Shown here in pieces: positions 2,848-62,339 of a stretch of DNA of 64,000 nucleotides. Position 1 is the stretch's first letter. Every line of letters starts with the position of its first letter. The stretch comes from Chelydra serpentina. Its lineage: Eukaryota; Chordata; Testudines; Chelydridae. Made by a program: the position numbers and the translations under genes. The stretch spans positions 38,724,001 through 38,788,000 of the forward strand of contig JBAIAC010000008.1 in assembly GCA_037349315.1 (NCBI GenBank), in the 5' to 3' direction. The notes beneath the pieces were generated by a model that was not told the DNA's origin, made no database searches, and worked only from the letters and a program-made list of their open reading frames with translations.

Positions 2848-4722
2848 TCAGGGAGGATGAGGTCCTCTTCTAGCAGTTGAGGTGTGAACACCAAGGGAGG
2901 AGAAACTGCTTTTGTAGTTAGCTAGCCATTCATAGTCTTTGTTTAATCCTGAGCTGATGGTGTCAAATTTGCAAATGAACTGAAGCTCAGCAGTTTCTCT
3001 TTGAAGTCTGGTCCTGAAGTTTTTTTGCTGCAGGATGGCTACCTTCAAATCTGCTATTGTGTGTCCAGGGAGATTGAAGTGTTCTCCTACAGGTTTTTGT
3101 ATATTGCCTTTCCTAATATCTGATTTGTGTCCATTTATCCTTTTGCGTAAGGATTGTCCAGTTTGGCCAATGTACATAGCAGAGGGGCATTGCTGGCACA
3201 TGATGGAGTATATTACATTGGTGGATGTGCAGGTGAATGAACCGGTGATGATGTGGCTGATTTGGTTAGGTCCTGTGATGGTGTCCCTGGTGTAGATATG
3301 TGGGCAGAGTTGGCATCGAAGTTTGTTGCATGGATTGGTTCCTGAGTTAGAGTTATTATGGTGCGGTGTGTAGTTGCTGGTGAGAATATGCTTCAGGTTG
3401 GCGGGTTGTCTGTGGGCGAGGACTGGCCTGTCTCCCAAGGCCTGTGAAAGTGAGGGATTGTTGTTCAGGATGGGTTGTAGATCACTGATGATCCGTTGGA
3501 GAGGTATTAGCTGAGGACTGTAAGTGATGGCCAGTGGAGTTCTGTTGGTTTCTTTCTTCGGTTTGTCTTGCAGCAGGAGGCTTCTGGGTACACGTCTGGC
3601 CCTGTTGATCTGTTTTCTTATTTCCTCATGTGGGTAGCGTAGTTTAGAGAATGCTTGGTGACGATCTTGTAGGTGTTGGTCTCTGTCAGAGGGGTTGGAG
3701 AAAATACGGTTGTACCTCAGTGCTTGGCTGTAGACAATGGATCGTGTGGTGTGTCCGGGATGGAAGCTGGAGGCATGTAGGTAGGCATAGCGGTCGGTGG
3801 GTTTTCGGTATAGGGTAGTGTTAATGTGACCATCGCTTATTTGCACCGTGGTGTCTAGGAAGTGGACTTCCCATGTAGACTGGTCCAGGCTGAGGTTGAT
3901 GGTGGGGTGGAAGCTGTTGAAGTCGTTGTGGAATTGTTTCAGAGTTTCCTTCCCATGGGTCCAGATGATGAAGATGTCATCAATGTAGCGTAGGTAGAGA
4001 AGGGGCGTGAGTGGACGAGAGCTGAGGAAGTGTTGTTCCAGATCAGCCATAAAAATATTGGCATATTGTGGGGCCATGCGGATGCCCATAGCAGTGCCAC
4101 TGGTCTGGAGGTATATATTGTCACCAAATTTGAAATAATTGTGCGTGAGGATAAAGTCACAGAGCTCAGCAGCCAGTTGTGCTGTGGCATCATCAGGGAT
4201 ACTGTTCCTGACAGCTAGCATTCCATCTGTGTGTGGGATGTTTGTGTAGAGAGCCTCTACATCCATGGTGGCTAGGATGGTGCTTTCTGGGAGATCACCG
4301 ATGCATTGTAGTTTTCTCAGGAAATCAGTGGTGTCACGGAGATAGCTCGGAGTGCTGGTGGCATAGGGTCTGAGTAAAGAGTCCACATATCTGGTCAGTT
4401 CTTCAGTGAGAGTGCCAATGCCCGAGATGATGGGGCGTCCAGGATTTCCAGGTTTGTGGATCTTGGGTAATAGATACAATAACCCCGGTCGGGGCTCTAA
4501 GGTATGTTGATTTGTTCCTGTGTTAGCGTAGGGAATGTCCTGAGTCGATGGTGCAGTTTCTGTGTGTAGTCCTCAGTGGGATCTGAGGAGAGTGTCCTGT
4601 AGAAGTTGGTATTGGAGAGTTGTCTGGCAGCCTCCTTTTGGTAGTCAGACCTATTCATGATGACAACAGCACCTCCTTTATCAGCCTCTTTGATTATAAT
4701 GTCAGGGTTGTTTCTGAGGCTG
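2848..4722 (-). pseudogene. PLE reverse transcriptase / GIY-YIG endonuclease (broken)
   Basis: A 543-codon frame (2848-4479) carries reverse transcriptase motifs: MDVEALYTNI at residues 72-81, GTAMGIRMAPQYANIF around 128-143, and the catalytic YIDD at 165-168. A GIY-YIG endonuclease follows near 422-441, with VIY and MYIG, the R/K-rich segment after it, and a conserved E in the C-terminal part. A Cys pair (CNKLRCQLC) lies between the two domains. The N-terminal part (4497-4722, with IIIKEADKGGAVVIM) lies in another frame and ends at a stop at 4497, so a frameshift near 4480-4500 separates the two. The true N-terminus is lost by 5' truncation. The frame at 4497-4772 also runs into CR1 sequence (MMGSKLTVTTQER), which is a chance fusion. 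In active elements this protein nicks DNA and reverse-transcribes the element RNA; this copy cannot. Confidence 0.92.
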
Positions 4723-20479: not shown

Positions 20480-21627
20480 GAGGTGGCTTTTAAAGAGCTT
20501 CTCTAGCTTGTGCTTTCACTCCTGTCTCAGGAAACAGGCAGAGCTTCTGTGAGAAGTCGGTGGACATTCTGGCAGCATTTTATGACCCACAAAAGGACAC
20601 CTGACACGGCTTACGATGGAGCAGAAGGAGGACGACAACAAGAACACAGACATGGCAGACTGGAACTGGCTGATCACTACACTTGGTATAGCCACTGATA
20701 CCCACTACATAGACAGGCACTTATGGAACAGGGCCACAAGCACAGACTGGTGGGATCATATCACATGGAGACCTGGGATGGCCAGCAGTAGGTCCAGAAC
20801 TTTCGCCTGACGAAAGCTACATTTCTGGAGCTTTGAGAGCAGTTTACCCCACCTGCCAGCACAAACATACATGTATGAGGGCACCCTTGCTGCTCCAGAA
20901 GTGAGTTATTATAACTGTCTGGAAGCTGGCTATCCCAGACTGCTTACAGGTCCATTGCAAATGAGTTTGGTGTTGGAAAGTCGACTGTGGGTAAAGAGGT
21001 GGTGTGTGGTTTACCCCAAGGTGGCAGGCATAAAAGATATTCCTGAAGTCACTGCGGGCTTTGAGAGAATGGGGTTTCCTAACTGTGCCAGGGCCATTGA
21101 TGGGACTCATGTGCCTATGGTTTGCCTTCCTCAAGGAGTACATGACATAAACTGCAAAGGGTACTCCTTCATTGTTATGCAGGCCCTTGTGCACCACAGA
21201 GGGTGATTTATGAATGTCAACGTGAGTTGCACTAGGAAAGTTCATGGTGCCGCCCCAGCTCACCCGCTGATCAGGAGTCTACATTCATGGATAGGCTGGG
21301 ACAGTATTTCCACCAAATGACACTGTCATTAACATAGTTACTGTCCCTACCATTATTCTGGGGGACTCCACATACCGACTTTTGCCTTGGATTATGAAAC
21401 CATACCCTGATTGCAGAGGGCCTGGCAAAAGACAGCTTAATTACACTCTCAGCAGGTGCAGAATGGTTGTTGAATGTGCTTTTGGCAGATTGAAATCCCA
21501 TTTGAGATGTCTACAGACCCATCTGGATGCCAGTGTCATCAATGCTGCCTGCATTACTGTGGCTTGCTGTGCTCTTTGCAGTCTTTGTGAAGCCAGATAT
21601 GAGCTATTTCCCCTGGAATGGACCTAG
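20480..21627 (+). pseudogene. Harbinger (HARBI1-like) transposase, broken
   Basis: Fragments in several frames add up to a HARBI1-like DDE transposase. Near the start is DWWDHITW. In the frame at 20871-21206 come GFERMGFPNCARAIDGTHV, which contains the first catalytic D, and KGYSFIVMQALVHHRG. A TGA at 21204-21206 then breaks the frame just before FMNV. Later come a GDSTYRLLPWIMKPYPD-like segment with the second D (about 21360-21405) and SRCRMVVECAFGRLKSHLRC with the E (21382-21627 frame). At least one nonsense codon and several frameshifts make it non-functional. An intact protein would cut and paste the element into TWA targets. Confidence 0.85.
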
Positions 21628-27297: not shown

Positions 27298-28165
27298 CTG
27301 TCTTTTGCCAGGGCCTCTGCAATCAGGGTATAGTTTCATAAGCCAAGGCAAAAGCGGGTATGCAGAGTCCCCCGGACTAATGGTGGACAGGGCCGGCTCA
27401 GGCACCAGCCTACCAAGCACGTGCACGTGCTTGGGGCGGCACCTTCGGGGGGGAGGTGCTCAGGTGAGTTTCTTTTTTTTTTTACCTCGGGGGGTTGTTG
27501 GGGTTGGCTGCGGGCGGGCATGCCGTATGCCCCGCGGCGGTCCGGCGCAGCCGGGAGAGCGGGGCCGCGGCCAGGCTTGCCGCCCACCCTGCGGCGCTCC
27601 AGCACGGTCGGGAGAGTGGGGCTGCAGCCGGGCATGCCGTTCACCCCCCGGCGCTCTGGCAGGGAGAGACGCTGGTGGGGAGGGGTGTAGTTTTTTTTGT
27701 TTCGGTGGGGCGGCGCTTGGGTTTTGTTTGTTTTTTGCTTGGGGCGGCAAAAAAGTTAGAGCCGGCCCTGATGGTGGAGACAATAATTCCACTTATGACA
27801 GTTTCATTTGGTGGGAACAGTGTTTCAGCCTGTCCATGAATATAGATTCCTGATCAGTGAAAGATTATGGAATCATGAACTTTCCCAGTGCAACACACCT
27901 TGACATTCATAAATTGCCCTCTCTGGTCCATGAGGGCTTGCATAACAACGGAGCAGTACTCTTTGCGGTTTGTGTACTCACGTGCTCCTTGGAGAAAGCA
28001 AACTGTGGGCACATGAGTCCCATAAATGTCTCCTGAGCAGTTAGGAAACCCCATTCTCTCAAAGCCAGAAGTTACTTCAGGCATATCTTTTATGTCTGCC
28101 GTCTTCAGGTAAACCACGCATCTGATTGCCTCAGAAACCTCTGTCAACACTTTACCCACAATCAA
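27298..28165 (-). pseudogene. Harbinger transposase, second broken copy
   Basis: The frame at 27854-28165 encodes GFERMGFPNCSGDIYGTHV, where the AIDGTHV motif of the first copy has become DIYGTHV, so the first catalytic Asp is lost. It continues with VVMQALMDQRGQFMNVKV. The part with the second catalytic region lies at 27298-27380, the complement of the 'accgacttttgccttgg' segment of copy one, and is separated from the rest by the hAT MITE. Multiple frameshifts are present. Non-functional. Confidence 0.82.
27388..27770. mobile_element. hAT MITE of the CAGGGCCGGCTC family
   Basis: A 383-bp element with ends cagggccggctcagg and tagagccggccctg and a perfect 8-bp duplication, atggtgga (27380-27387, 27771-27778). 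It shares the subterminal 'cgtgcttggggcggcacctt' with the MITE at 16439-16710, in opposite orientation. It lies within the transposase gene of the second Harbinger copy. The GC-rich interior produces meaningless ORFs on both strands. Confidence 0.95.
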
Positions 28166-29030
28166 TTTTCCAAAACCAAATTGGTTTGCAATGGACCTTT
28201 AGCAGTCTGGAGTAGTCAGCTTCAAGTCAGTCAGAGCAAGCTGCTTCTGGACTGGCAAGTGTGTCCTCAAATGTCTATCTTAATGCTGGCGTTCAGGGCA
28301 AGCTGCTCACAAAACTCCAGAAATGTAGCTTTCTTCATGTGAAAATTCTGGAACTACTGCTGGCCATCCCAGGTCCGCATGATGAGGTGATACCACCAGT
28401 CTGTGCTTGTGGCCCACTTCTAGAACCTCCAGTCCTTGTACGAGGCATCAGCAGCTATATTGAGCGTCATGAGCAGCATGAGTCAGTACAAGTCTGCCAT
28501 GCCTTTGCCTCCTCCTCCTGCTCGATCATAAGCTGTGTCAGGTGAATTTGGTGAGTCAGAAAACACCACCAAAAATGTCCACCAGCATCTCACAGAAACT
28601 CTGTCCATTTCCTGACACAGGAGTGAAAGCGCAAGCAAGAGAAGTTCTTCAAAAGGTGCCTCCTCTGGTAGCTGGGAGTGCACAGACCAAAATGACTGCT
28701 TGGTAGGCTGTGTTGGCAAGCTGTACAAACTTCCTGTAATGTGCAAGGTGGGCAGTAAGGTTTTCCCAGAGTGCACCATGGTCAAAGGGCTAGAGTGGCC
28801 ACATTTCAGGAGGTCCTGTTAGAATGTGGGATATGGTTGGTTTGACATGGGTCTCCATGCTGCAGTGTGGATGCTAGAGCCCCAGGTTCAAGCCCAGGTT
28901 AGAAAATTCTTAATATAGGGTTAACAATCAGTGCAGACACGCAGACACTCAAAACATGGGTTCTCTAACCCACAGTCAGCTGACTCAAGTCCCCCTAACC
29001 CTGGTCTTAAACTGCAGTGTAGATATACCC

Positions 29031-38652: not shown

Positions 38653-39727
38653 CAGGTAGACTAGCTCTGAGTATTAGACAAGAGGCAACAGATAGATACA
38701 GACCAACTGATGGGAGAGTGCAAGAAAACAATGAGACAATATTGATCAGCATGACCATTCATGTTCCCATTCACTTTTTTGTAGATAAGCAAATCCATCA
38801 TGATACATTTCACTAGAATTTTGAGAATGATGTAGTCAAAGATTGGGGCCACCTTTGATACAAAATAAATTTGTGCTTGTTTGTTGTACATTTCCTGTCA
38901 GTGCTCACCTGTCATGGGGCACCTGGGACATGCTAGATCTCAAATTGCCACTGCCAAGTACTGATGGGATCAGATTTATCCATCTGCATCTTTCCTATGC
39001 CAGTCAACTGGGGTGTATGGGCTTCCTACTGTAAACCCAAGTACCAGGGGGAACAAGAAGACAGACGAGAATGGAAGGGCTGGGTCAGCAGATGCAAACA
39101 ATAGGATTAAATAACAAAAAGTGTCTTATATAGCTGCCAGTTACAGCTGTTAAGGGATTGCAGATATGATAATGGCTGCAGTGATGTAATATCAGCTTTT
39201 CAAAGACTGAAGACAGCAATACAGCTCTTGGCGACCAGATTGGTGCCCGAAGCTGGAAACTCAGAGAAAGAGGAACCACAGAGATAGCTACTAGGAGTCA
39301 GAAAAGAATGAAAGCCAGAAAGGAACAGTGACAGCTTTTGCACAATAAAAGGCTCTTTTCCAAAATAATAATCCTTTTGCTTTCTTTACTAGCAAATTGA
39401 AGTGACTAACAAAAGCAAAAGAAAGCATGGCTCAAAAAGACCCTGGATATGATAGAAACACCATTTTTTTAAACCATCATTTTCTTCTGTGAGGCAGGGA
39501 CGGAAGAAGGAAGAACAAAATCAAAATCAAATAAAACCAGAAGTGGACACTGACTAGCTACTGGGACATTGCTGTGTCTGTGTGCGTTTTGAAGAAAAAG
39601 AGCCAGACACTAACCACCAATAGAGGACACCACACCCCCTGGGAAGAAGAGGGACTTGCTAACCAACGGGGTCATTATTTCAACCTCAGTGATGAATAGC
39701 CAGAGAGGGGGAAATGTATGAACCCCC
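38653..39727. other. No recognisable feature
   Basis: Only short unconvincing ORFs, and no element boundary seen upstream of the gypsy element. Confidence 0.45.
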
Positions 39728-40173
39728 TGTCACGGAGTGTGTGTGGGGGGTCGGGTCCTGCACCCCCCTGCTCTGGGATTCAATGTGACTTTCAGCCAGC
39801 CAGTAGAACAGAAGGTTTATTAGGGTTGCCAGGAAACAGTCCAAACAGAGCTTGCAAGTATGACCAGGACCCCTCAGCTGGGCCTTTCTGGGGGGCAGGG
39901 AGCTTAGACCCCAGCCCTGGGGCTCCCTGCGTTTCACCACCCAGCTCCAAACTGCCAAACCCCCCAGCCAAACCTCCAGCAGGCTCTTCCCCTCCCCCGG
40001 GACCCCTCCTCTCGCCTTTGTCCATTCTCCCAGCCAAAGGTGTCACCTCCCAACCCCCCTCCTGGCTCATGTTACAGCCCCAAGTAAAGTCTCGCATTCC
40101 CAATGCAGCCTGTCCCAGGGAACCTCCCCCGCAAGCCTCCCCGGTCAAATCCACCTCGCTCCCTACTCCGTCA
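39728..40173 (-). repeat. 3' LTR of the gypsy element
   Basis: Plus strand tgtcacggag...ctccgtca. In element orientation it starts TGACGGAG and ends CTCCGTGACA. The last codons of pol run 11 bp into this LTR, and the stop is at 40163-40165. Confidence 0.95.
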
Positions 40174-41746
40174 CATCTCTCCCCCCTTCGAGACTGAACT
40201 GAGCGGGGTCACTCTGACCAGTGGCCTGGGGAAGTTCAGGGCCCCCTCTCCGGGACAACGCATCCGCTATCAGGTTGGCACTTCCCTTCACATGGACCAC
40301 GTCCATGTCGTAATCCTGCAGGAGCAGGCTCCATCTCAGGAGCTTGGCGTTGGCCCCTTTCATCTGGTGTAGCCAGGTCAGGGGAGAGTGGTCGGTGTAC
40401 ACGGTGAAGTATCGCCCAAATAGATACGGCTCTAGTTTCTTGAGGGCCCACACCATGGCCAAGCATTCTTTCTCGATGGCCGCATAATTCTGCTCTCGGG
40501 GTAGCAGCTTCTTGCTTAGATACACGATGGGGTGTCTCTGCCCCGTTTCATCTTCCTGCATTAACACCGCCCCCAGTCCCATGTCTGAGGCTTCGGTGAA
40601 CACCAGAAAGGGCTTGTCAAAGTCTGGGTTTGCCAGAACCGGGTCCCTGATCAAAGCCTCCTTCAGTGCACAGAGAGCCCTCTGGCACTCCTCGGTCCAG
40701 ACCACCTTGTCTGGTTTCCCCTTCTTACATAGCTCAGTGATGGGAGTGGCTATGGTGCTAAAGTGGGGCACAAATCTTCGATAGTACCCTGCCATCCCAA
40801 TAAAGGCCTGGACCTGCTTTTTAGTTTGTGGAGCGGGCCAGTCCCGGATCGCCTCCACCTTGGCTGGTTCTGGCTTTAGGCGGCCGCTCCCCACCCGGTG
40901 GCCCAGGTAGGACACTTCCACCATCCCCACCTTGCACTTCTCCGCTTTTATGGTCAGCCCAGCCCCCCGGAGTCGGTCCAGCACTTGTTTAACTTGTGAC
41001 ACATGGTTCTCCCAGGTCTGGCTAAAGACACAGATATCGTCAATATACGTCACAGCGAAACTCTCCATCCCCTTCAGTAGCTGATCCACCAGGCGCTGGA
41101 AGGTGGCTGGCGCTCCCTTGAGGCCAAAAGGCACGGTCAGGAACTCGTAGAGCCCCAGAGGGGTAATGAAGGCAGATTTCAGCCGGGCATCTGCATCCAG
41201 TGGCACTTGCCAGTAGCCCTTTGTAAGATCCATGGTGGTAAGGTACCGAGCCCCTCCCAGCTTGTCTAGGAGCTCGTCAGGCTGGGGCATGGGGTAGGCA
41301 TCAGATACAGTGATGGCATTGAGCTTCCGATAGTCCACACAGAACCGGATCGACCCATCCTTTTTGGGGACCAGCACCACCGGCGAGGCCCAAGGGCTGG
41401 ACGACGGCTGGATCACCCCCAAAGCCAGCATGTCCTGGACCTCTCTTTCCAGGTCCTGAGCTGTCTCCCCTGTGACTCGGAAGGGGGAGCATCTTATAGG
41501 TTGATGGGATCCTGTCTGCACCCGGTGGACAGTCAGATTAGTGCATCCAGGCTGGTTGGAAAACAGCTGTCGGTACAGTTGCAGCACCCCTCTGATCTCA
41601 GCTTGCTGGGCAGGGGTTAGCTGATCAGAGAGAGGGATTGTTTCTTGGGAGGAGCCAGCTCCTGTCTCAGGGAATAGATCTACTAGAGGGTCACTTCCCT
41701 GATCCTCCCAATGTCCACACGGCCAGCACCACATTTCCCCTGTCAT
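40163..41746 (-). pseudogene. Gypsy pol: reverse transcriptase and RNase H
   Basis: A 527-codon frame without internal stops. The reverse transcriptase has PSSSPWASPVVLVPKKDGS (residues 114-132), FCVDYRKLN, TTMDLTKGYWQ with the first catalytic D (173), FGLKGAPATFQ, and YIDD at 234-237. The connection domain has QAFIGMAGYYRRF. The RNase H has TEAS at 384-387 where gypsy elements have TDAS, so the first catalytic Asp is Glu. The other residues are present: E427 in EKECLAMVWAL, D452 in YTDHSPL, D496 in ADALSR. The frame begins within the integrase C-terminal region in a different phase, so a frameshift at about 41700-41745 separates it from the upstream frame. It would copy the genomic RNA inside the particle if it were translated. 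Confidence 0.93.
40174..40189 (-). other. Polypurine tract
   Basis: On the minus strand, GAAGGGGGGAGAGATG lies immediately upstream of the 3' LTR. This is where plus-strand DNA synthesis would be primed, and it confirms the element's orientation. Confidence 0.8.
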
Positions 41747-43427
41747 AATATGGCTTCATCATATTGACATGGTACACCTGGCAGTGGTGTGCCCGGTTAG
41801 ACAGCTCCACCACATAATTTACCTCATTTAGCTGCTTGACAACCTTGAAAGGGCCTTCCCAAGCGGCCTGCAGCTTGTTTTTCCTCACGGGGATGAGAAC
41901 CATCACCTGATCCCCGGTGGCGTAGGTGTGGGCCTGCGCCGTGCGGTCATACCAGACCTTCTGCTTCCTCTGGGCTCTGGCCAGATTTCCCTTGGCCAGG
42001 CCCATGAGCTCAGTAAATCTCTCTCGGAAGGTCAAAACATACTCCACCACCAACTCTCCCTCAGGGGAGGCTTCCCCCTCCCATTCGTCTCTCATCAGGT
42101 CCAGGGGCCCCCTCACCCTCCTGCCATATAACAGTTCGAAGGGCGAGAATCCAGTAGACTCCTGGGGCACTTCCCTGTACGCGAAAAGCAGGTGCGGTAG
42201 GTACTTGTCCCAGTCCTGCGGGTGCTGGTTCATAAAGGTTTTCAGCATCATCTTTAGCATCCCATTGAACCTCTCCACCAGCCCGTTGGACTAGGGATGA
42301 TATGCTGAGGCCCAGCTGTGCCGGACCCCACATTTCTCCCACAGGCACCGGAGTAGGGCCGACATGAAGTTGGACCCTTGGTCTGTCAGGACTTCCTTGG
42401 GGAACCCCACTCGGCTGAAAATGGTTAGCAGCACATCTGCCACGGTGTCCGCTTCAATGGAGAATAAGGGCACCGCCTTGGGGTAGCGGGTGGCGAAGTC
42501 TACCACCACCAGAATGTATTTCTTCCCTGACCGGGTTGTCTTGCTGAGAGGCCCCACTATGTCCATGGCCACCTTCTGGAAGGGCTCCTCTATGATGGGC
42601 AAAGGTCTCAAAGCCGCTTTCCCCTTGTCTCAAGCCTTCCCCACCCGCTGACAGGGGTCACAGGACCTGCAGTACTGATGGACAGTTGTAAAGACCCCAG
42701 GCCAGTAAAAGTTCTGTAGCAACCTCTGCCTGGTGCACCGGATCCCCTGGTGCCCTGCGACAGGGATGTCGTGGGCCAGGTACAGTAGCTTGCGGCGATA
42801 CTTCTGGGGGACCATCAGCCTCCTCTTGATCCCCCATGTCTCCATCTCACCGGGGGGAGCCCATTCCCGGTACAGGAACCCCTTCTCCCACAGGAACCTC
42901 TCCTGGCAACCTCTCCACATGGTCTGTACCTCCCTGCGGTCGGCCAGGTCCCTGAGCTTCCGCAAGGAAGGATCTCTCTGTAACTCAGCCTAGAACTCAG
43001 CAGCTGGGGAAGGAATGGGAGCCTGCTCCCTCGTGCTGTCTGTGTCTGAGGCTGCAGCCTCTCTGCGCCTGGTCCTTGGGTACTTCCTCCCCACTGGGCC
43101 AGGGTGCTGCGCCCCTTGCAAGGTACCCTCTCCAAGGCCAGGGCGTAGCGCCCCTTGTCGGCTCTGGCTATGGGTCATGACCAGGGTGTCCCTGGAATCG
43201 CTGGGCCAGTCTTCTAGGTCTCCCCCCATCAGTACCTCTGTGGGCAAATGATGGTGCACCCCTATGTCCTTGGGGCCCTCCTTGGCCCCCCATTTCAGGT
43301 GTACCCTCGCCACGGGTACCTTGAACGGGGTCCCGCCCACCCCTGTCAGGGTCAGGTAGGTGTTGGGCATCACCCGATCTAGGGCCACCGCCTCGGGCTG
43401 GGCCAGCGTCACCTCCGCGCCCGTATC
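41691..43427 (-). pseudogene. Gypsy pol: protease and integrase (three stops)
   Basis: One continuous reading frame, interrupted by stops at 42990-42992, 42630-42632 and 42291-42293. It begins directly after the gag stop with DTGAEVTLA, the aspartic protease active site. The integrase zinc-binding part follows (AHDIPVAGHQG, then CRSCDPC). The core has MDIVGPLSKTTRSGKKYI and VVVDFATRYPKAVPL with the first D, EVLTDQGSNFMS with the second D, and VERFNGMLK with the E after the AYHP motif. The C-terminal part has YHVNMMKPYY, typical of gypsy integrases. The three catalytic residues are present although the frame is broken. This block lies upstream of the reverse transcriptase, unlike in most gypsy elements. 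Confidence 0.92.
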
Positions 43428-45060
43428 TCAGTATCCAGTGACCCTCCTCCCATCTATCTCCAGGGGAACAAGGCACTCTCTCCGGAGGGACAGCCCCGCA
43501 CCCACCCTATAAACCGAGAACCCTGAGTCCGGAGCATCCAGCCCCCCCAAGGAGCTGGTCTGGGGCCCTCCTCCCTCCGGAGCAGTTGATAAGCTGCCAG
43601 CCCACCTTCTCTGGGCTGTCTGCCCCTCGTCCGGCTGGGTCCCTACCCAGTTAACCCGGTGTGGGTTTGGTCTGCTCAGTCTGTGTCTGATCTTGGGGCA
43701 CTGGGACCGTATGTGGCCCCTCTGGCCACAGTGATAGCAGCTCATGTCCCGTTGGTCCCCTTGAGCAGGTCGGTTGGTCCTGATGTCGGAGGTTCCCCTC
43801 GGGAGGGGGTTCTCCCTATTTCCCCTTTGGGAGGTCCCATGGTGACTCTCTTGCTGCCTCATCATGGGCCTGCTCCTTTGGGATTCCTCCCTGCCACCCC
43901 TTGACCGACTGTTCACAAACTCGTCGGCCAGCCGCCCTGCGTGCTGCGGGCTCTCTGGATTTTTGTCCATCAACCATAGCTTCAGGTCTGATGGGCACTG
44001 TTCATACAGTTGTTCCAGTATGATTAGTTCGAGCAGGCCCTCCATAGTTTGGGCCCCAGCGGTCCACTTGCGGGCGTATCCATGTATCCGGTTGGCCAGT
44101 TGTAGGTACGTGACCTTAGGGGTTTTACGCTGACCCCAGAACCTTTGACGGTACATCTCGGGAGTCAGCCCAAGCTCGTGGAGCAGGGCCTTTTTGAAAA
44201 GTTCATAGTCCCCAGTCTCCGACTCTTTCATTCGGCTGTACACGTCCAGGCCGGCAGGGTCCAGTAAGGGTGAGAAACTGGAGCTTGTCTGCAGGGTCAA
44301 CCTTGTGCAACCTGCAGGCATTCTCAAAGGCCGCCAGGAAGCTGTCTATGTCTTCCCCTTCCTTACACCGGGCTAGGAAGTTACGATCAAACTTCCCTGC
44401 AGTCTTGGGTCCCCCCTCACTCACCGCAGCCGGGGCCTCACTGCTCCTCAGTCTGGCCAGCTCCAGCTCATGCTGGCGTTGTTTCTCCTTCTCCTCTAGC
44501 TCATGCTGACGTTGTTTCTCCTCGTGCTGACGCTGCTTTTCCCGTTCTTCCTGCTCCTCCTTCAGTTCCTGCTGCCTCTACTCGAGCTCTTTTAGTCGTA
44601 TCTCCCTCTCCCAATCCAGCCGCCTCCACTGCTGGGATGGGGAGCTCCGCCAGGAGGATCCCCTGCTGGCCGCCAGGGTCAAGGTGCCCTCGGTATTTGC
44701 TGGGCTTTCCCCAACCTCTCCTCTGGGCAGAGGCAAGAGGGGTCTTGGGATGTCCTCCGCAGCAGTCTGACCCCTCCCAGCCAGGTCAGGCACTGGGGCC
44801 CACGCTGCATCTGCCGGGCGGCTTCCCCCAGGGACAGGGATCGGGTCATCCAAGCGATTCTTCTCCTCCAGCTGCGCAATCAGCTGTTCTTTGGTGGACT
44901 TCCCAATGCGCAGGCCCCTCTGCTGCACAGCTCCACCAGGTTGTTCTTACGGCGCTTAGCATACATCTTCCTGTTGGCCACTCGCAGGCCTGTGAAGTCT
45001 TGGCCCCCCACGGCTTCCAGGAGGAACCCCTAGTGTGCCAGCCCTTCTCACTGGTCACAC
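43428..45060 (-). pseudogene. Gypsy gag with SCAN-like capsid and zinc knuckle
   Basis: The N-terminal part at about 44860-44930 reads RGLRIGKSTKEQLIAQLEE, resembling a SAP helix-linker-helix. A stop at 44578-44580 is followed in frame by a charged coiled coil made of EKQRQHE repeats (about 44455-44577) and then GKFDRNFLARC...FLAAFENACRLH. A frameshift at about 44260 leads into the frame 43428-44327. There YELFKKALLHELGLTPEMYR, RQRFWGQRK and MEGLLELIILEQLYEQC...LWLMDKNPESPQHA form a SCAN-like capsid fold (residues about 41-140). A CCHC zinc knuckle, CYHCGQRGHIRSQC, lies at 197-210. The frame runs into the protease after a single stop at 43428-43430. The exact start codon is unknown. Confidence 0.88.
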
Positions 45061-45201
45061 ACCCTCAGGGTTAAGCGTAGCTCCTCTGCCCCCGAAACCG
45101 CTTCTCTCTGCCTCTTCAGCAACCTGCTCCCCGTCAATCCCCCTTCATTTTACTGCTCACCAGTCATTTACTGCAGGAAGTGCCGTTCATGGGGTGCAGT
45201 A

Positions 45202-45220
45202 GATCCCACCTTTGCCACCA
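45202..45220 (-). other. Primer-binding site, probably tRNA-Leu type
   Basis: On the minus strand, TGGTGGCAAAGGTGGGATC begins 2 nt after the 5' LTR. It begins with TGG, the complement of tRNA CCA ends, and resembles the 3' end complement of leucine tRNAs with a few mismatches. The tRNA assignment is from memory. Confidence 0.55.
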
Positions 45221-45222
45221 GT

Positions 45223-45668
45223 TGTCACGGAGTGTGGGGGTGCGGTCAGGTCCTGCACCCCCCTGCTCTGGGATTCAATGTGACTCTCAGCCAGCCAGTA
45301 GAACAGAAGGTTTATTAGGGTTGCCAGGAAACAGTCCAAACAGAGCTTGTAAGTATGACCAGGACCCCTCAGCTGGGCCTTTCTGGGGGGCAGGGAGCTT
45401 AGACCCCAGCCCTGGGGCTCCCTGCATTTCACCACCCAGCTCCAAACTGCCAAACCCCCCAGCCAAACCTCCAGCAGGCTCTTCCCCTCCCCCGGGGCCC
45501 CTCCTCTCGCCTTTGTCCATTCTCCCAGCCAAAGGTGTCACCTCCCAACCCCCCTCCTGGCTCATGTTACAGCCCCAGGTAAAGTCTCGCATTCCCAATG
45601 CAGCCTGTCCCAGGGAACCTCCCCTGCAAGCCTCCCCGGTCAAATCCACCTCGCTCCCTACTCCGTCA
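45223..45668 (-). repeat. 5' LTR of the gypsy element
   Basis: 446 bp, paired with 39728-40173. Five of the 11 differences cluster in the 18 bases around 45233-45250; the others are scattered transitions. Confidence 0.95.
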
Positions 45669-47933
45669 GACCCCCCCCCTCCATTATCACACAACAGCTA
45701 GCCAGCTGAGAAATTAGGTAGGCACAGTGAAGTAACACCATCTGATATGGCTCTGGGGCACAGTAAGTAGCGTGAAAGCATTCACAACTGTTCAAAAACA
45801 TCAAGTCATCTACATCAGCAGGGCCACACCTTCTATCACCTGTGTTTTAGATATTGAGACCATGAAGGCTGGAAAACTATTGAAAAATATAAAAAGGATC
45901 CTACAAGGAATAAAATGGAGAGTGCCTATTAAATTAAAGTAAAGGGGCCTGATTTTTTAAAATGGGCTCTTGTGCTGTTCTCCTATTTTTCACTTGCTTA
46001 TCATTATAGAAGCAGATTTTGGGGTATAATTAATTGTGGACACAAAGGATGGCATCTAGATGTCTAACTACCTGATTATGCCTGGAAATTGGGCAATTAG
46101 GTATCTACAACCCATCATGTGTCCAGTTATCTGCACTTGGAATTATTTGTAGGCAGGGAGTTGTGAGCATAACATTGGGGGCCATTTAAAAAAAAGATTA
46201 GGCCCTACAGGTTATTCATGTGCAATGGCAAGACTATGAAAATTACGCTGCTATTCTACTGTACTAACTAAACCAACCATCTCTAACCTCTTTTAACAAT
46301 GGCAATGATCACACTAATTATGTATATGTACATGCTGACAATGAGGAGGAATGGACACACTAGTTACAGTTAAAAAAGAGTGGAAATAGAAAGGTGCATA
46401 TCAGTCATTACAATAAATAAAATATTAAAATAGGCTACTTTGATTAATGTTGTCTAATATCTATCCAGTGCTCATTTGGGGCCCAGTTCTGCAACCATTG
46501 CAGTGAGTGAAAAAATGTGAGTAACAGTTGCAGAATTATACAGGCTATATGGAGCTATGGCAAATATTTGAGTGTCAGGTTTTCTGTGTTACTATGTAAT
46601 TGTAAAATCCAATGTCAACTTAGGGTATACATGATTTTTAGTAATGTTATTTTTGTCTCAGCTTGGTGATTCTGGATGGGGGATTTTTTGCTTGAGTTCT
46701 TTCCTAACACAACCCTATGTTCCTAGTATTGCCAAACTAATGTGATCCATCTGCTCTGCTGAATCATTTCTAGCTCACTAAGCAAAAACATTGCCTTTTG
46801 GTCATGGTTTGTATGCTTTTTAGATGCCCCTGCAGACCACTAAGAGTCATCGTGGGTTTCTCAGTAGCCAACTTGCCTTTCATTTAAACATATACATATG
46901 CAATTCACTTAGGGGGCAGAGGTATCTCTTTCTGTATCTTTATGCCCAGATATTGCTCTTCTCTCCCAAAGCTTTGTGATCCAAGTATCATGTGGGAGGA
47001 AATAAAGAAAACAACAGGGGACGGATGTTAAGGAAGGCGCTTCAGCCTTTGCTTTGTATTTGCTGGCTTTTGTGAATTTAAATTAGGCCCTTAAAACGGG
47101 TACAGTATGTGTTTTTGTGATTTAATTATACAGTGCCATCTAGTGATGGCCAGACCTCAGAGGGTCAAGTTAGGATCTGCACCGATGATTTGCTTAAGAA
47201 TTCTCCACACACACCCACTCCCCTGTCTTCATCGTGAAATCCTGTCTTACCTCCTTCTCCAACGATTCCCTGGCTTTCTACTCCCAGTGACACCTCTCCC
47301 CATGCCTTAAACAAGCTCTAGCTTCTTCACAGCTCCTCTAGTTCTGCTGATGATGTTGCTAGAAGGTCAGATTTCCCCTCTACTAAAACAGTCAGATCTT
47401 TGGTTAGTGATCATACAGCCTTGCCCTCCACCCCTTCTCGCTGTGGGAGTGGCAGCAATAAGAGCAGATGGCTGAACTATTAGAGCCCCTACCCTTCCAC
47501 AGTATTTCAGCTGCTCTGTGGAGGCTGCTGAATTATATTAACTACATGCCCTAGAATACACACCATTTCTTAATGCATTGGTATTCAGCATCCAATAGAG
47601 CAACTGGCAGAATTGCTGAGCTGCATAATAAATGCACCTAAGTGGTCATGATGGGGTGACCTATTGGAGGGTAATGGCAAAGGAGTACACATTCCATGTG
47701 GATAGCTAGGGGATAATGAATGAACTCTAGGACATTCTTGACTACTGTAAACATTTTTCAAACCATAAACATTTGGATCCAGATGAAAACAGATGGGAAT
47801 GTGGGCTAGAAGTTGTATTCAGACTAATCCTCCTTCTGCCAACTCTAGGACTCATCACTTGAAAATGTGTGGTGGAGCAGCAAGAGAACTTGAATTGCAA
47901 TAGTCAAAAATACTACACATAAACACTCGCAGC
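45669..47933. other. No gene; unassigned sequence
   Basis: No ORF of substance and no transposon terminus that I can support. A stretch at about 45940-46170 ('ggggcctgattttttaaaat', 'gcaattaggtatctacaac') may be an old amniote repeat. Confidence 0.5.
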
Positions 47934-48550: not shown

Positions 48551-49232
48551 TGTAGCAAGGTCGGACTCACCCCTGCGGCGCCTCCTGCTGGTTGTCTTGG
48601 GAATTAGCTCGCCAGCCTCTGGAGCGCCCTCTGCAGGCCAGTGATCCGCCTGTCCACTCTGGCCCCGTGTCCCTCCCAGGACCCGGTGCCCCTTTAACTG
48701 GGGTGCTGCCCCCTGGCAGTACCCCTAGATCTGGGTCTCCCCTCCCCAGGGGAACCCCCAACCCACTATCCCCACCTCGCCTCAGTCGTAGGCAACTGCC
48801 AGTCACCAGCTAGCCCCCGCGCCCTGGGGCAGACTGCAGTATAAGCCACTCATCACAGGCAAAGGGGGTTTGGACCTGCTGTCTCAGCCTACCCGTGGGT
48901 TGCCCCCGCAACCCCAGTACCTAGTGGGGCCTAACCCTAGGCCACAGCCTGGGGTTCTCTCAGGCCGGAGCTCCCCAGCTCCTCTGGCCTTCCCCAGCCC
49001 TGCTCCACCCTAGGTACCTGGTCAGGTCCCTGCAGCCAAGCCCTTCCCTCTCTAAAGGCAGAGAGAGAGTCTGTGCTCCAGGCCCACTGCCCTCTTATAA
49101 GGGCCAGCTGGGCCCTGATTAAACTGGCCCCAGCTGTGGCTGCTTTGCTCATCAGCCCAGCTTTCAGCCTCAGCCCTCTCCCAGGGCTATTTCCAGCCCC
49201 TCCGGGCAGGAGCAGGGTTCCACCCTGCTACA
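48551..49232 (-). repeat. 3' LTR of the young LTR element
   Basis: 682 bp, 99.6% identical to 50084-50765. The visible differences are ccccgtgtccc versus ccctgtgttcc and ctgtctc versus ctgcctc. Confidence 0.95.
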
Positions 49233-49245
49233 CACCCCCCACCTC
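49233..49245 (-). other. Polypurine tract
   Basis: On the minus strand, GAGGTGGGGGGTG lies immediately upstream of the 3' LTR. Confidence 0.7.
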
Positions 49246-49290
49246 AAGATCCCCTCCACCGGGGGGGGGGAGGGGGTAAAGAGAGGACCC

Positions 49291-50083
49291 CTAGCGCCCC
49301 AGCATCCCTCTCAGCTGGGCACGCAAGGAATCCCTCTCATGCCGCAGGCCCTCCATTGTCTGGAGCCACCTGCTTCCCTCTTCAAGGGTTTGGGTCCCCA
49401 CTGTAGCCCTCGTGGCTCTTGTGTGGGTTCCCTGGTTTATCTGGGGCCTCTCTGCCCCAGACAATCCCCTCTCGAGGGCCCTGGTCATCACCACCCTCTC
49501 CTTCGGGGCAGTCTCGGACCCGGCCCGATCCTTTGGCCTCCCCCTCCTTCTCTGAGGGCAAGGCCTCTTGCTCTGGCTCCCTTTGTGGCACAGGAAGCAT
49601 AGCCAGTGACTTCCCTTGGCCACCTCCGGGTGGGCCTGGGCCCTGTGAGTCTCTCGAGGGCACTCCCTCTTCCGATGCCCTGGTTCCCCACAGGCCCAAC
49701 AAGTCTGGAGCCCCCCTGTTGGCTTCACAGGAGGCGCTCTCCCAGTTCCATTCTGTCCCGGGGAGAGCCTCTTTGCTCCAGTCCGGTAGGGGCACTCTTT
49801 TCTCAAGTGTCCCAGTCGCCCACACGCGAAACAGTCCTTAGGCCTTGGCACTGGTCTCTTGCCTCCGGCGCCTGGCCTCTCATAGGGTCTGGGTGCCCAC
49901 TGCCGCAACAGCCAAAGCAACCCCGTCTGCCGCTTGGCCAGATGGGCTGCCCAGGCCCTCCAATAAGAGCTCCGCTTCTCCACCATCTCGTTCTGCACTC
50001 TTTTCTTCGGGCAATAGTCCACAGTCCTTTGCCCTGCCCCTTGTATCAGGGGTGGACCATCTATGCCCGCATTCTCCACCACC
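49291..50083 (-). CDS. Zinc-knuckle (nucleocapsid-like) protein of the LTR element
   Basis: An uninterrupted frame covers nearly the whole internal region. The frame is open into the 5' LTR up to 50103, where a GTG stands. The first ATG is NEM-VEKRS at about residue 40, so the start is unclear. Two canonical CCHC zinc knuckles are present: CFACGRLGHLRKEC (residues 91-104) and CWACGEPGHRKREC (135-148). A third, CFLCHKGSQSKRPC, has lost the His. The protein is rich in R, K and P, with a short helical tail (RWLQTMEGLRHERDSL). It resembles the nucleocapsid end of a gypsy Gag without a recognisable capsid domain. A role in binding the element's RNA is inferred. The absence of stops fits the very young LTRs. 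Confidence 0.8.
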
Positions 50084-50765
50084 TGTAGCAAGGTCGGACT
50101 CACCCCTGCGGCGCCTCCTGCTGGTTGTCTTGGGAATTAGCTCGCCAGCCTCTGGAGCGCCCTCTGCAGGCCAGTGATCCGCCTGTCCACTCTGGCCCTG
50201 TGTTCCTCCCAGGACCCGGTGCCCCTTTAACTGGGGTGCTGCCCCCTGGCAGTACCCCTAGATCTGGGTCTCCCCTCCCCAGGGGAACCCCCAACCCACT
50301 ATCCCCACCTCGCCTCAGTCGTAGGCAACTGCCAGTCACCAGCTAGCCCCCGCGCCCTGGGGCAGACTGCAGTATAAGCCACTCATCACAGGCAAAGGGG
50401 GTTTGGACCTGCTGCCTCAGCCTACCCGTGGGTTGCCCCCGCAACCCCAGTACCTAGTGGGGCCTAACCCTAGGCCACAGCCTGGGGTTCTCTCAGGCCG
50501 GAGCTCCCCAGCTCCTCTGGCCTTCCCCAGCCCTGCTCCACCCTAGGTACCTGGTCAGGTCCCTGCAGCCAAGCCCTTCCCTCTCTAAAGGCAGAGAGAG
50601 AGTCTGTGCTCCAGGCCCACTGCCCTCTTATAAGGGCCAGCTGGGCCCTGATTAAACTGGCCCCAGCTGTGGCTGCTTTGCTCATCAGCCCAGCTTTCAG
50701 CCTCAGCCCTCTCCCAGGGCTATTTCCAGCCCCTCCGGGCAGGAGCAGGGTTCCACCCTGCTACA
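50084..50765 (-). repeat. 5' LTR of the young LTR element
   Basis: 682 bp and the partner of 48551-49232. The adjoining internal sequence on the minus strand (GGTGGTGGAGAATGCGGG) contains a TGG two bases from the LTR, but I could not match a tRNA. Confidence 0.95.
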
Positions 50766-51511: not shown

Positions 51512-52640
51512 ACCTAGAACCATAGGGTTAGGAGGGACCACAAGGGTCATCCAGTTGTACCCTGTGCCAAGATGCAGGATGTGTTGTGGCTAAACCATCC
51601 AAGACAGATGGCTATCCAGCCTCCTTTAGAAAACCTTCAGTGGAGGAGCTTCCATGACTTCCCTGAGTAGTTTGTTTTATTGTCTTACTGTTCTTACAGT
51701 GGGGAAGTTTCCTGAGATTTAATCTAAATCTGCTGTGCTGTAGTTTGAACCCATTGCCTCTTGTCCTGCTCTCTGTGGCAAGAGAGAACAACTTTTCTCC
51801 ATCTTTTTAGGGTAGCCTTCCAAGTATTTGAAGATCAGTATCAAGTCCGCATTTAATCTCCTCTTTTCCAAACGAAATATACCCAGTTCCTTTAGCCTTT
51901 GCACATATGGCTTGCATTCCATCCCTTTGATCATCTTTGTCACTCACCTCTGGATCCTTTCCAGTTTTCTCTACATTCTTTCTATACATTAGTGACCAAA
52001 ATTGGACACAATACTCCAGCTGAAGCCTAACCAGCACCGAGTAGAGCTGTGCTATCACCTCCTGTGTCTTGCATGCTATGCCTCTGTTAATGCAACCAAA
52101 AATTGCATTTGTTTGCAACATCATGGCATTGTTGACTCATTTTGAGGTTGTGATCCACCACAACCTCCAGATCCTTTTCAGCAGTGCTACTAAGCCAGTT
52201 GTCCCCCATTCTGTATTTGTGCATTTGATTTTTATTCCCTAAGTGTAGCACCTTACATGGGTCTTTGTTGAATTTCATTTTGTTGTCTATATCCCAGTTC
52301 TCCAATTTATCAAGATCCCTTTGAATTTTAGCTCTATCCTTCAAAGTGTTTTCAGCCCCTCCCAACCTCAGCTTTCTGTCATCTGCAAATTTGATCAGTA
52401 TGCTCTCTATTCCTACATCCAGGTCATTAATAAAGATATTAAATAACACCAGACCGAGAACAGATCCCTGTGGAACCCCACTCAAAACCTCCTTCCAATC
52501 CGACATCAATCCATTACTAGTTACTTGTTGTTTAACCAATTATGTATCCACTTAATGGTAGTTCCGCCGAGCACAAATTTCTACAGCTTATGTGGGACTG
52601 TGTCAAAAGCCACTGCATTCACCCTATCCACCAAACTATT
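51512..52640 (-). mobile_element. CR1 LINE, 5'-truncated
   Basis: The complement begins 'ctagaaccatagggttagg' (the CR1 3' tail) and reads through the C-terminal half of ORF2 to about 52640. It is of the bird/turtle 'agggttggaagggacc' type, a different subfamily from the copies at 1.9 and 14.2 kb. Confidence 0.87.
51719..52539 (-). pseudogene. CR1 ORF2 reverse transcriptase fragment
   Basis: Three overlapping frames. The first (52087-52539) has LSGVPQGSVLGLVLFNIFIND and KFADDRKLRLGG, the FADD catalytic box, then KMKFNKDPCKVLHLGNKNQ. The second (51807-52124) has AIFGCINRGIA and VRLQLEYCVQFWS. The third (51719-51943) has LGIFRLEKRRLNADLILIFKYL. Two frameshifts separate them. This is the polymerase C-terminal half of a dead copy. 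Confidence 0.87.
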
Positions 52641-58972: not shown

Positions 58973-61900
58973 CAGGGCTGGCCTTACCATGAGGTGAACT
59001 GAGGTGACTGCCTCAGGTGCCAGACTGTGTGGGGGAGTGGCGCCACTAGGACCCAGAGTGTAGAAAATTGTGTCTGCTGCTAGAGCATATGTATTCTTTC
59101 TGCTCTAGATGCACAGAGATGGTGGAGTGCTGTGCTGGAGGAAGGAGGGCACAAGAGACATAACAGGCAGGCGGGAGAAAAGTTGAGAGGGAATAACAGA
59201 AAGCAGCAGGAGCTGCAGGGAGAGAGAGGAGGAGGAGCCTCTTATGTACCTCTCTAGCACCCCCAGGATCCTGGACTGATTAACACCAGCTTCTCAGGGA
59301 GCTTCCTGTTTCGGGCTGCTTCCCTGAACCCACTTGAGGAGAACAGGCACTCAGCTGAAGTAGTAGGAGCCAGTTAGGCCCTTAAAACACTGATATCTTC
59401 CCTCCCTCAGGCCCTGCTACCAGCCTGCTTATTTGTCCCCTTCAATTGAGGTTTGAAAGCCACTATAGTTGAAACAGAACAGCAGTCCTGAGTGAAAGAA
59501 GAAAATGTCCCTCTGGAGCAGCATTCAGAAAAAGAAAGAAAGCAAAGGAAGCTTTTCTATATAAGGAGGAAGGAACTCTCCTGAGATATATAGACACAAA
59601 TATTCACGGTGAGCCTTCCAGCCCCAGTGACGATGTGAGTGGTGAGGAGATGCCAGATCTTCCAGTTAGAGTGTAGGTAACTTGGCAGCTACTGCAGCAT
59701 CCATATCTCCATCTCAAATGGATGTAACCATGCACATTCCTGAAAAAAAGTGTAGATCAGAGAAGAGTGTGGTGGAGGAGCAAGAAACAGCTGCTGCCAA
59801 GTTTAGTTCCTTAAGTCTGGATGATCCAGGACTGTGGACCACTTGAGCAGTAGCCTGAGGGACTTCCTTGTACTTCATGGGCCACAGCAAGTGAAAAACT
59901 TCATGTTCCCCAAAGACAATGAAAATAGAAGTTTCCATCCAACACATTACTGGCGTGAAATCCCCAATGGTGACAAAGTGGAGAGGCCATGGCTTATGTA
60001 CTCAAAAACCCAGAATACTGCATACTGTTTTTGTTGCAAACTCTTCCAGACTAATGTTCCAGCCACATTGGGTTCTACAGGAACAAAGGACTGGAAAAAT
60101 CTGGCTAGCAATCTGGCATGCCATGAGAAGGCAGCAAATCACCAGAGAGCATTTCATAGGTGGAAAGAGCTCGAGATGAGACTAAGGTTAAAGGCCACCA
60201 TAGATGATCAGCATCAAGAGAAGATTGCATCAGAGTCTCTTTACTGGCAAAATGTTCTGAAAAGGCTCATTGTCATTGTGAGAATGCTTGCTACCCAAAA
60301 CCTAGCACTGCGTGGCACTTCAGATCAGCTGTATGTGCCAAACAAAGGAAACTTCCTTAAAATTGTGGAGCTGATGGCTGAGTTTGATGCTGTACTCCAG
60401 GAGCATCTAAGAAGAGTCACCACCCAAGAAATGTACACACCCCACTACCCTGGAAAAACAATTCAAAATGAGATCATACAGTTACTGGCAACAAAGGTCA
60501 AACAGAAGATTGTGGCAGATCTGAACTCAGCAAGATATTACTCTGTTATTCTGGACTACACACCTGACATCAGCCATAAGGAACAAATTACTTTAATGGT
60601 GCATTTTGTAACAACAACAGAACCTAGTGAAAATGTCCCTGCAATGGTGACTGTCAGAGAGCATTTTCTAGAATTTATTGACATTGATGATACTACAGGA
60701 GCTGGTATGACAAATGTGCTTCTTAAAAAGCTGGAAGATACGGGAATTGCGATAGCTGACATGAGAGGTCAGGGCTACGATAATGGTGTCAACATGAGAA
60801 GAAAGAACAGAGAAGTGCAGATACAGATCCGAGAGTTAAACCCTCAAGCTTTTTTTGTCCCATGCAGTTCTCGTTCATTGAACTCGGTGGTCAGTAATGC
60901 AGCATCAGCTTCTAGTGAGGCTGCTGAATTTTTTAATGTAATTCAAAGCATCTATGTATTTTTCTCTGCATCAATTCATCGATGGCAAATTTTGAAGCAA
61001 CATCTGGGAACATCCTCTCTGACACTGAAACCACTGAGTGCCACACGATGGGAAAGTTGAGTGGAGGCGATAAAGCGTATTAAACACCAAATTGGGAAGA
61101 TAGATGATGCCATAGTTGCCATTATGGAGGATAATGCTATGACAGGAACTGTTCATGGGAGAACAGTGGCAGAGGGAAATGGAATCACCAGAAACATACA
61201 TAACTTCAAATTTCTGTGTGGCTTAGTGTTGTGGCATGACATACTGTTTGAAATAAATGTTGTAAGCAAGAGACTCCAAGGTGTTGACCTTGATATATCT
61301 GGAGCAATGGAACAATTGGACAAAGCAAAGTCATATCTACAGTCTTACCAGTCAGATGAGGGATTTCAAAACGTTCTGAAGAGTGCACAGAACTTCACAC
61401 TGAAGCTCTTGTCCCACCCATTCAAGAATACAAGAGTCACCGAAGAAGACATTTTGATTACGAGGCATGGGATAATCCTGAAAGAGACCTCAAACAACAA
61501 TTCAAAGTTGAATTCTTTTACCAGGTACTACATTGTTCAATATAGTCAGTTGAAGAACGTTTCATGCAACTCAAGGAACACAGTGTATTTGGGATGTTGT
61601 ATGATATTCCAAAACTCCTCACTATACCTGAAGAAGACCTACACCAGCAATGCAGGGCACTGGAGACAGCGTTGACACATGATGACATGCGCGATATTGA
61701 TGCAAGTGATTTAGGTGATGAACTGAAAGCCCTTTCAAGATACATTTCAGCAGAATCAACTCCAAAGGCTGTTCTGGAATATATGTGCACAAATAAGATG
61801 ACCACCCTCTTTCCAAATGTTTTTGTTGCTCTGCGCATACTTCTAACACTTCCTGTAATAGTTGCCAGTGGAGAACGCAGCTTCTCCAAGCTGAAGTTAA

Positions 61901-62339
61901 TAAAAACACATCTACGCTCCACAATGACACAGGAGAGGCTAGTCGGCCTTGCAACCATCTCAACAGAGCATGATCTGGCCCAGACTGTGGACCTTCAGGA
62001 AGCAGTTTCAAATCTTTGCAACCAAGAAGGCACGGAAAGCACCACTTTGATTATTCAAACAGATAAAAATGCCAGCGTTTACTATGCAGACAAGAAAAGT
62101 TACATTTGCTGTTCAGGCATTTGAAAGTTAAGGCATTTTAAGTTGTTAGTTCTCCTTTATTGGGGTAGGTTGCAAAGCCGTACCATGAGAGGAGTAGAAC
62201 AGGAAGAAGGCAGAATTGTAAATTTTGTAAATTGTATTGAATTGAATTGTAAATTCAAAGTTTTGGCCCAAGCGAGGGGGCATGGGGGTGTCATTTGAGC
62301 TCCCCACCTCAGGTGCCAAAATGTTGTGGGCCGGCCCTG
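58973..62339 (+). mobile_element. hAT DNA transposon, nearly full-length relic
   Basis: A 3,367-bp element. The left end is cagggctggccttacc and the right end is gtgggccggccctg. Both ends then carry 'tcaggtgcc' / 'ggcacctgag'. The flanks are accctagg on the left and ggctagga on the right. They share ctagg but are offset by one base, so the 8-bp duplication has probably decayed. The inside encodes one hAT transposase. The ends match those of the MITEs at 16.4, 27.4 and 47.9 kb (CAGGGCCGGC), so this family could have supplied their transposase. Confidence 0.85.
59495..62124 (+). pseudogene. hAT transposase (TTF zinc finger, ZMYM-like type)
   Basis: An N-terminal PSGAAFRKKRKQRK motif (about 59500) and SLDDPGLW are in other frames than the main ORF (59834-61060, 408 codons). 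That ORF has FPKDNENRSFHPTHYWRE, a TTF-type zinc finger (CFCCKLF at 65-71, with H97 and H103), the first catalytic D241 in VILDYTPDISHKEQ, and D316 in RGQGYDNG. It ends with a TGA right after ATRWES at 61058-61060. The next frame continues in phase from 61061 (VEAIKRIKHQIGK). A frameshift at about 61500 leads to the C-terminal frame (to 62124). That frame carries the hAT dimerisation motif VIVASGERSFSKLKLIKTHL (residues 98-117) and RLVGLATISTEHDL. One nonsense codon and at least two frameshifts make it dead, but all motif blocks are readable. It would excise and reinsert elements with matching ends. Confidence 0.92.

What the first reader, a model, noticed from the sequence alone, without database searches (positions are those of the whole stretch)
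43900..44230. Gag capsid that resembles the SCAN domain of vertebrate transcription factors
Seen: YELFKKALLHELGLTPEMYR...LLELIILEQLYEQC...LWLMDKNPESPQHA has the spacing and signature of SCAN (leucine-rich LEQ motif, W, PES). Known: the SCAN domain of zinc-finger genes was proposed to derive from the gag of a Gmr1-like gypsy element. This copy shows the two hallmarks, a SCAN-like capsid and Gmr1 order, in one element.
Basis: partly seen in the sequence, partly recalled or inferred. Interest (0 to 1): 0.75.

Follow-up and report, generated by a model that had tools for sequence, protein, structure and literature searches.

The report
Retrotransposon capsid related to SCAN domain
A broken copy of what looks like a turtle jumping gene carries a capsid segment clearly related to the SCAN domain of zinc-finger genes, a good example of a relationship already described in 2011 rather than something new.

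Summary
On the minus strand, 43902-44162 encodes a match to Pfam SCAN (E 5.2e-12, 45.8 bits, cut-off 27) followed by a CCHC knuckle. It is the C-terminal part of the capsid of one LTR retrotransposon, 39728-45670, with LTRs 97% alike, a primer-binding-like site and the order gag, protease, integrase, reverse transcriptase, RNase H, which is the order of Gmr1-type Ty3/gypsy elements. The copy is broken: eight open segments in three frames. Of 28 relatives in the first search all are named from turtles and 19 carry a precomputed SCAN hit. By sequence, the best solved structures are SCAN domains of zinc-finger proteins. The fold test was inconclusive. The descent of SCAN from a Gmr1-like gag is in print (Emerson and Thomas 2011, not held; cited in passages seen), and over half of frog Gmr elements carry SCAN. 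This is a new member of a known kind. Loose end: a painted-turtle model, P0019, joins such a SCAN to zinc fingers; gag-immunoglobulin models suggest an annotation chimera.

The parts
45223..45670 (-). 5' LTR; reads TC...CA on the minus strand
   Evidence: 12 of 447 compared positions differ from the 3' LTR; ends ...CACTCCGTGACA
39728..40175 (-). 3' LTR; reads TG...CA on the minus strand
45671..45675 (.). GGGGG (minus strand) next to the 5' LTR, possible target-site duplicate, low complexity
   Evidence: flanks printed
39723..39727 (.). GGGGG (minus strand) next to the 3' LTR, possible target-site duplicate, low complexity
   Evidence: flanks printed
45202..45220 (-). putative primer-binding site, two bases after the 5' LTR; starts TGG as if for a tRNA 3' CCA; likeness to tRNA-Leu is recalled, not tested
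   Evidence: the only place in the window with up to 3 mismatches
44578..44946 (-). gag N-terminal part, open segment
   Evidence: matched by eye with P0001; no Pfam hit above cut-off
44203..44577 (-). gag charged repeat region (coiled-coil-like by eye) and start of the capsid, open segment in the same frame
   Evidence: counterpart in P0001 and P0014 by eye; no Pfam hit above cut-off
43428..44345 (-). gag open segment with SCAN-like capsid C-terminal domain and CCHC knuckle
43902..44162 (-). SCAN match (PF02023)
   Evidence: E 5.2e-12; coordinates
43698..43739 (-). CCHC zinc knuckle
   Evidence: PF00098 E 1.1e-5; motif
42990..43427 (-). protease segment, DTGAE at 43413-43427
   Evidence: motif only; no Pfam family hit up to E 1
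42630..42989 (-). integrase zinc-binding domain (H2C2)
   Evidence: PF17921 E 4.7e-20
42291..42629 (-). integrase core
   Evidence: PF00665 E 2.7e-15
41691..42290 (-). integrase C-terminal part with GPF at 41847-41855; no chromodomain hit up to E 1
   Evidence: PF22938 E 4.2e-11, PF24626 E 1.6e-10
40163..41755 (-). reverse transcriptase (YIDD at 41036-41047) and RNase H
   Evidence: PF00078 E 3.6e-35, PF17917 E 9.3e-41

Best explanation
This is one degenerate copy of a Gmr1-type Ty3/gypsy LTR retrotransposon in what is probably a turtle genome, and the SCAN-like stretch is the C-terminal domain of its Gag capsid. In intact members this domain would hold Gag proteins together in the virus-like particle, the CCHC knuckle would hold the RNA, and the pol enzymes would copy and insert the element. 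The host SCAN domain of zinc-finger genes is a relative of this capsid domain, as published. Shown here: sequence homology, domain order, LTRs, and that this copy is broken. Inferred: particle assembly, dimerisation, host species, and direction of descent (element to host).
For: SCAN and zf-CCHC hits in the gag segment, and IN hits upstream of RT hits, all on one strand. LTRs 97% alike, K2P 0.027. Primer-binding-like site next to the 5' LTR. 28 of 28 relatives found with the gag segment are named from turtles, 19 of 28 with a precomputed SCAN hit; over all three searches 29 of 43 distinct proteins have one. The four SCAN domains of zinc-finger proteins lead the five solved-structure matches of a profile made from the window and 19 SCAN-bearing relatives. 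The published frame: passages.
Against: The two AlphaFold models were weak (mean pLDDT 60.2 and 46.2), so the fold test is inconclusive; its results are told under Tried and rejected. No Gmr1 reference sequence was at hand, so clade membership was not tested with a tree. The protease rests on a motif alone. The primer-binding-like site is two bases off the LTR end, and the possible target duplicate is a run of G.
Confidence: 0.95

Rival explanations
1. The stretch is a host SCAN zinc-finger gene or pseudogene, not a retrotransposon gag.
For: Pfam SCAN match; a database names one close relative after SCAN genes: P0039, called zinc finger protein with KRAB and SCAN domains 1-like, Pelodiscus.
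Against: The stretch lies in one frame with a CCHC knuckle, is followed by a protease motif, integrase and RT on the same strand, and is flanked by LTRs. No C2H2 finger family was listed for this segment.
Confidence: 0.02
2. The SCAN score reflects only the general capsid fold shared by Ty3/gypsy and retroviral Gags, not a special tie to SCAN.
For: The Ty3 capsid paper says that both capsid halves share the fold of the SCAN domain (passage). No capsids of non-Gmr1 gypsy elements were scanned here as a control.
Against: SCAN was the only capsid-type family listed up to E 1. Among 28 chains with E up to 10, four had E below 0.01: three SCAN domains in the capsid region and one zinc-knuckle match. 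In a 2024 survey the authors' capsid HMMs detected none of the known human SCAN proteins (passage), which suggests that general capsids and SCAN do not match each other easily.
Confidence: 0.08
3. An addition, not an alternative: this family is being captured anew by host zinc-finger genes in turtles, as P0019 would suggest.
For: P0019 (Chrysemys) has gag-like residues up to 138, 69% identical over 134 residues to this copy, and then C2H2 fingers with four PF00096 stretches.
Against: In the alignment P0019 lacks 12 residues at the start of SCAN and its Pfam match starts at profile position 8. Other models join the gag to immunoglobulin sequence (P0031 by precomputed domains; P0026 by eye), which points to insertions stitched in by gene prediction. 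No transcript evidence was available.
Confidence: 0.12

Closest known systems
Gmr1-type Ty3/gypsy retrotransposons (Gmr1 of Atlantic cod; Gmr elements of frogs and pufferfish)
   Same: PR-IN-RT-RH order (passage for Gmr1; here); SCAN in gag as in over 50% of frog Gmr elements (passage); LTR 448 bp and length 5.9 kb, near pufferfish Gmr elements with LTRs of 337-518 bp and consensus lengths of 6058-6465 bp
   Different: Probably from a turtle; this copy is broken, with gag and pol in several open segments, while pufferfish Gmr have one continuous gag-pol frame
SCAN domain of vertebrate zinc-finger proteins (ZNF24, PEG3, ZNF42, ZNF174)
   Same: Sequence homology; the Pfam match spans nearly the whole profile
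   Different: Here it sits in a Gag before a CCHC knuckle, not with C2H2 fingers
[quoted passage not shown]
   Same: Same proposed source, a Gmr1-like capsid
   Different: Those are described as host domains; this is an element

Membership tests
Pfam SCAN (PF02023) | Score above the curated cut-off over most of the profile | tested here: met
   45.8 bits against 27, profile 1-88 of 90
Pfam SCAN (PF02023) | SCAN fold and domain-swapped dimer | tested here: inconclusive
   Monomer models only, of low confidence (mean pLDDT 60.2 and 46.2); the dimer was not modelled
Gmr1-type Ty3/gypsy | Integrase encoded before reverse transcriptase | tested here: met
   IN hits in segments 42989-41691, RT in 41755-40163, minus strand
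Gmr1-type Ty3/gypsy | LTRs, primer-binding site, gag and pol of an LTR retrotransposon | tested here: met
   the primer-binding site is by position and TGG start only
Gmr1-type Ty3/gypsy | No env gene | tested here: inconclusive
   The RNase H hit ends about 135 bases before the 3' LTR, which leaves no room for env there; env was not searched for as such
Gmr1-type Ty3/gypsy | RT or IN groups with the Gmr1 clade in a tree | not tested
   no Gmr1 reference sequence was at hand
Gmr1-type Ty3/gypsy | SCAN-like capsid in gag (reported for over 50% of frog Gmr elements; not a strict requirement) | tested here: met
   among relatives 19 of 28 have a precomputed SCAN hit
Active retrotransposon | Open gag-pol frame | tested here: not met
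   eight open segments in three frames

The most novel reading that the evidence does not exclude
Turtle genomes hold a young Gmr1 family whose SCAN-like capsid is being joined again to C2H2 zinc fingers, independently of the ancient event behind mammalian SCAN genes, with the painted-turtle protein P0019 as a first case.
Probability: 0.1. Interest if true: 0.65.

Novelty: new member of a known kind. Interest (0 to 1): 0.22.

Why it matters
It adds an example, with LTRs, Gmr1 order and a strong SCAN match in one element, to the published case that the SCAN domain came from a Gmr1-like gag. Its practical use is as a warning for annotation: a turtle gag fragment is named after a SCAN zinc-finger gene (P0039), and others sit in gene models with host domains (P0019, P0031, P0026), which could inflate counts of SCAN genes in reptiles. 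If P0019 proved real, a second birth of a SCAN zinc-finger gene could be studied while its source is still recognisable.

Tried and rejected

Viral contigs: 7 stretches matched a pattern, none encodes a relative by tblastn. NCBIfam: no family up to E 0.1 for 3 of 3 proteins. A SAP-like gag N-terminus was considered: 3 of 7 proteins scanned (P0010, P0029, P0030) had SAP-type matches, all far below cut-off. Alignment A2: 18 of 18 members match SCAN when scanned singly, but I had chosen those 18, of the 32 proteins then held, from ones already listed with SCAN, so this count is no independent evidence. The same holds for A1: it took the window and the 19 of 28 relatives with SCAN and dropped the 9 without (P0015, P0021-P0028); these 9 were not scanned.

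Papers: Emerson and Thomas 2011 is not held. Searches for Gmr1 with retrotransposon and turtle found 0 papers, and for SCAN domain with turtle, zinc finger and retrotransposon 1, whose title and abstract start concern DUF3669. I therefore do not claim that turtle cases are absent from print.

Full report
What was checked. A Pfam scan gave SCAN at E 5.2e-12 (45.8 bits, cut-off 27, residues 62-148, profile 1-88 of 90) and a CCHC knuckle at E 1.1e-5. By sequence against solved structures, 28 distinct chains came up at E up to 10: the SCAN domain of ZNF24 led (E 1.8e-6), PEG3 (0.0043) and ZNF42 (0.0082) were also SCAN, and most other rows were zinc-knuckle matches. A profile of the window and 19 SCAN-bearing relatives gave five chains at E up to 0.1: ZNF24 at 1.6e-10, PEG3 at 6.9e-7, ZNF42 at 2.7e-6, ZNF174 at 0.009 and one nucleocapsid at 0.086.

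The element. LTR copies lie at 39728-40175 and 45223-45670, with 12 of 447 compared positions different, K2P 0.027. Both end in CACTCCGTGACA on the minus strand; the 3' copy begins TG, the 5' copy TC. GGGGG flanks both outer ends and may be the target duplicate, but it is a run of one base. Two bases after the 5' LTR is a 19-base primer-binding-like site found once in the window at up to 3 mismatches; its likeness to tRNA-Leu is recalled. From 5' to 3' on the minus strand come gag, a protease motif DTGAE (no Pfam hit), integrase H2C2, integrase core, integrase C-terminal SH3-like part with GPF, reverse transcriptase with YIDD, and RNase H. The integrase-first order is that of Gmr1 (passages).

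State of this copy. The coding part falls into eight open segments in three frames, so this copy is broken. Longer open gag proteins are recorded from turtles.

Relatives. The gag segment found 28 proteins, all named from turtles (that these genera are turtles is my knowledge), at 43-83% identity over 17-99% of the query; 19 of 28 carry a precomputed SCAN hit. Two more searches gave 17 and 26 proteins, partly the same; all are named from turtles except P0043, which has no name. Over the three searches 29 of 43 distinct proteins have a precomputed SCAN hit. The profile search scored only the 7998 candidates sharing most words, so distant relatives may be missed. In the first scans of relatives SCAN bits ranged from 35.1 (P0017) to 63.3 (P0012, Pelodiscus). 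In alignment A1 the SCAN stretch is somewhat more conserved (mean 0.82) than the 35 residues before it (0.78) and the 12 after (0.73), a small difference. The closest member of A1 is P0001 from Macrochelys, 87% identical over the SCAN stretch, so the window is probably from a snapping turtle or kin; this is inference.

The loose end. P0019 from Chrysemys reads as gag up to residue 138 and then as a C2H2 protein. The part between looks like the linker of turtle KRAB zinc-finger genes, which I recall and did not test. P0031 joins the same gag to immunoglobulin domains, and P0026 seems to by eye. P0019 also lacks 12 residues at the start of SCAN in the alignment. Together these look more like gene models stitched across insertions than three new genes, but no transcripts could be seen. 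P0039, a gag fragment of Pelodiscus, is named ZKSCAN1-like.

Structure. Models were weak: mean pLDDT 60.2 for the window stretch and 46.2 for P0014. The first has helices at 36-44, 54-70, 75-89, 93-102 and 107-123 across the SCAN stretch. The fold test is inconclusive; the library searches are told under Tried and rejected.

What is known. I saw passages, not whole texts, of PMC4592553, PMC3424704, PMC4131045, PMC11011659, PMC6525542, PMC2774666, PMC11117352, PMC2582038 and PMC3406341. They state that SCAN derives from the C-terminal part of a Gmr1-like gag capsid (citing Emerson and Thomas 2011, which is not held), that over 50% of frog Gmr elements carry SCAN, and that joining to zinc fingers is seen in Anolis. 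The finding fits this account.

Verdict. Interest is low, with a small chance that P0019 is a true recent capture.

Noticed in passing
48551-50383: Two direct repeats (300 bases shown, 99% alike, 1533 bases apart) lie on either side of a minus-strand segment 49291-50136 with two CCHC knuckles: perhaps a short LTR element with only a gag remnant.
   Followed up: partly
2848-4572: Minus-strand 574-residue segment with reverse transcriptase and GIY-YIG hits, as in Penelope-like elements (the family name is recalled).
   Followed up: partly
59825-62124: Plus-strand segments with DUF4371 and hAT dimerisation hits, probably a hAT-type transposon remnant.
   Followed up: partly
21295-21627 and 27854-28198: DDE_Tnp_4 hits, the second below its cut-off: perhaps Harbinger-like transposase remnants (the family name is recalled).
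   Followed up: partly
52087-52539: Minus-strand reverse transcriptase hit, E 8.7e-8, perhaps a LINE-type remnant.
   Followed up: no
P0010, P0029, P0030 residues 6-35: The gag N-terminus of 3 of 7 scanned relatives resembles a SAP domain but scores far below cut-off; it could be a DNA-binding part.
   Followed up: no
P0039: A Pelodiscus gag fragment is named zinc finger protein with KRAB and SCAN domains 1-like; likely a misnaming.
   Followed up: partly
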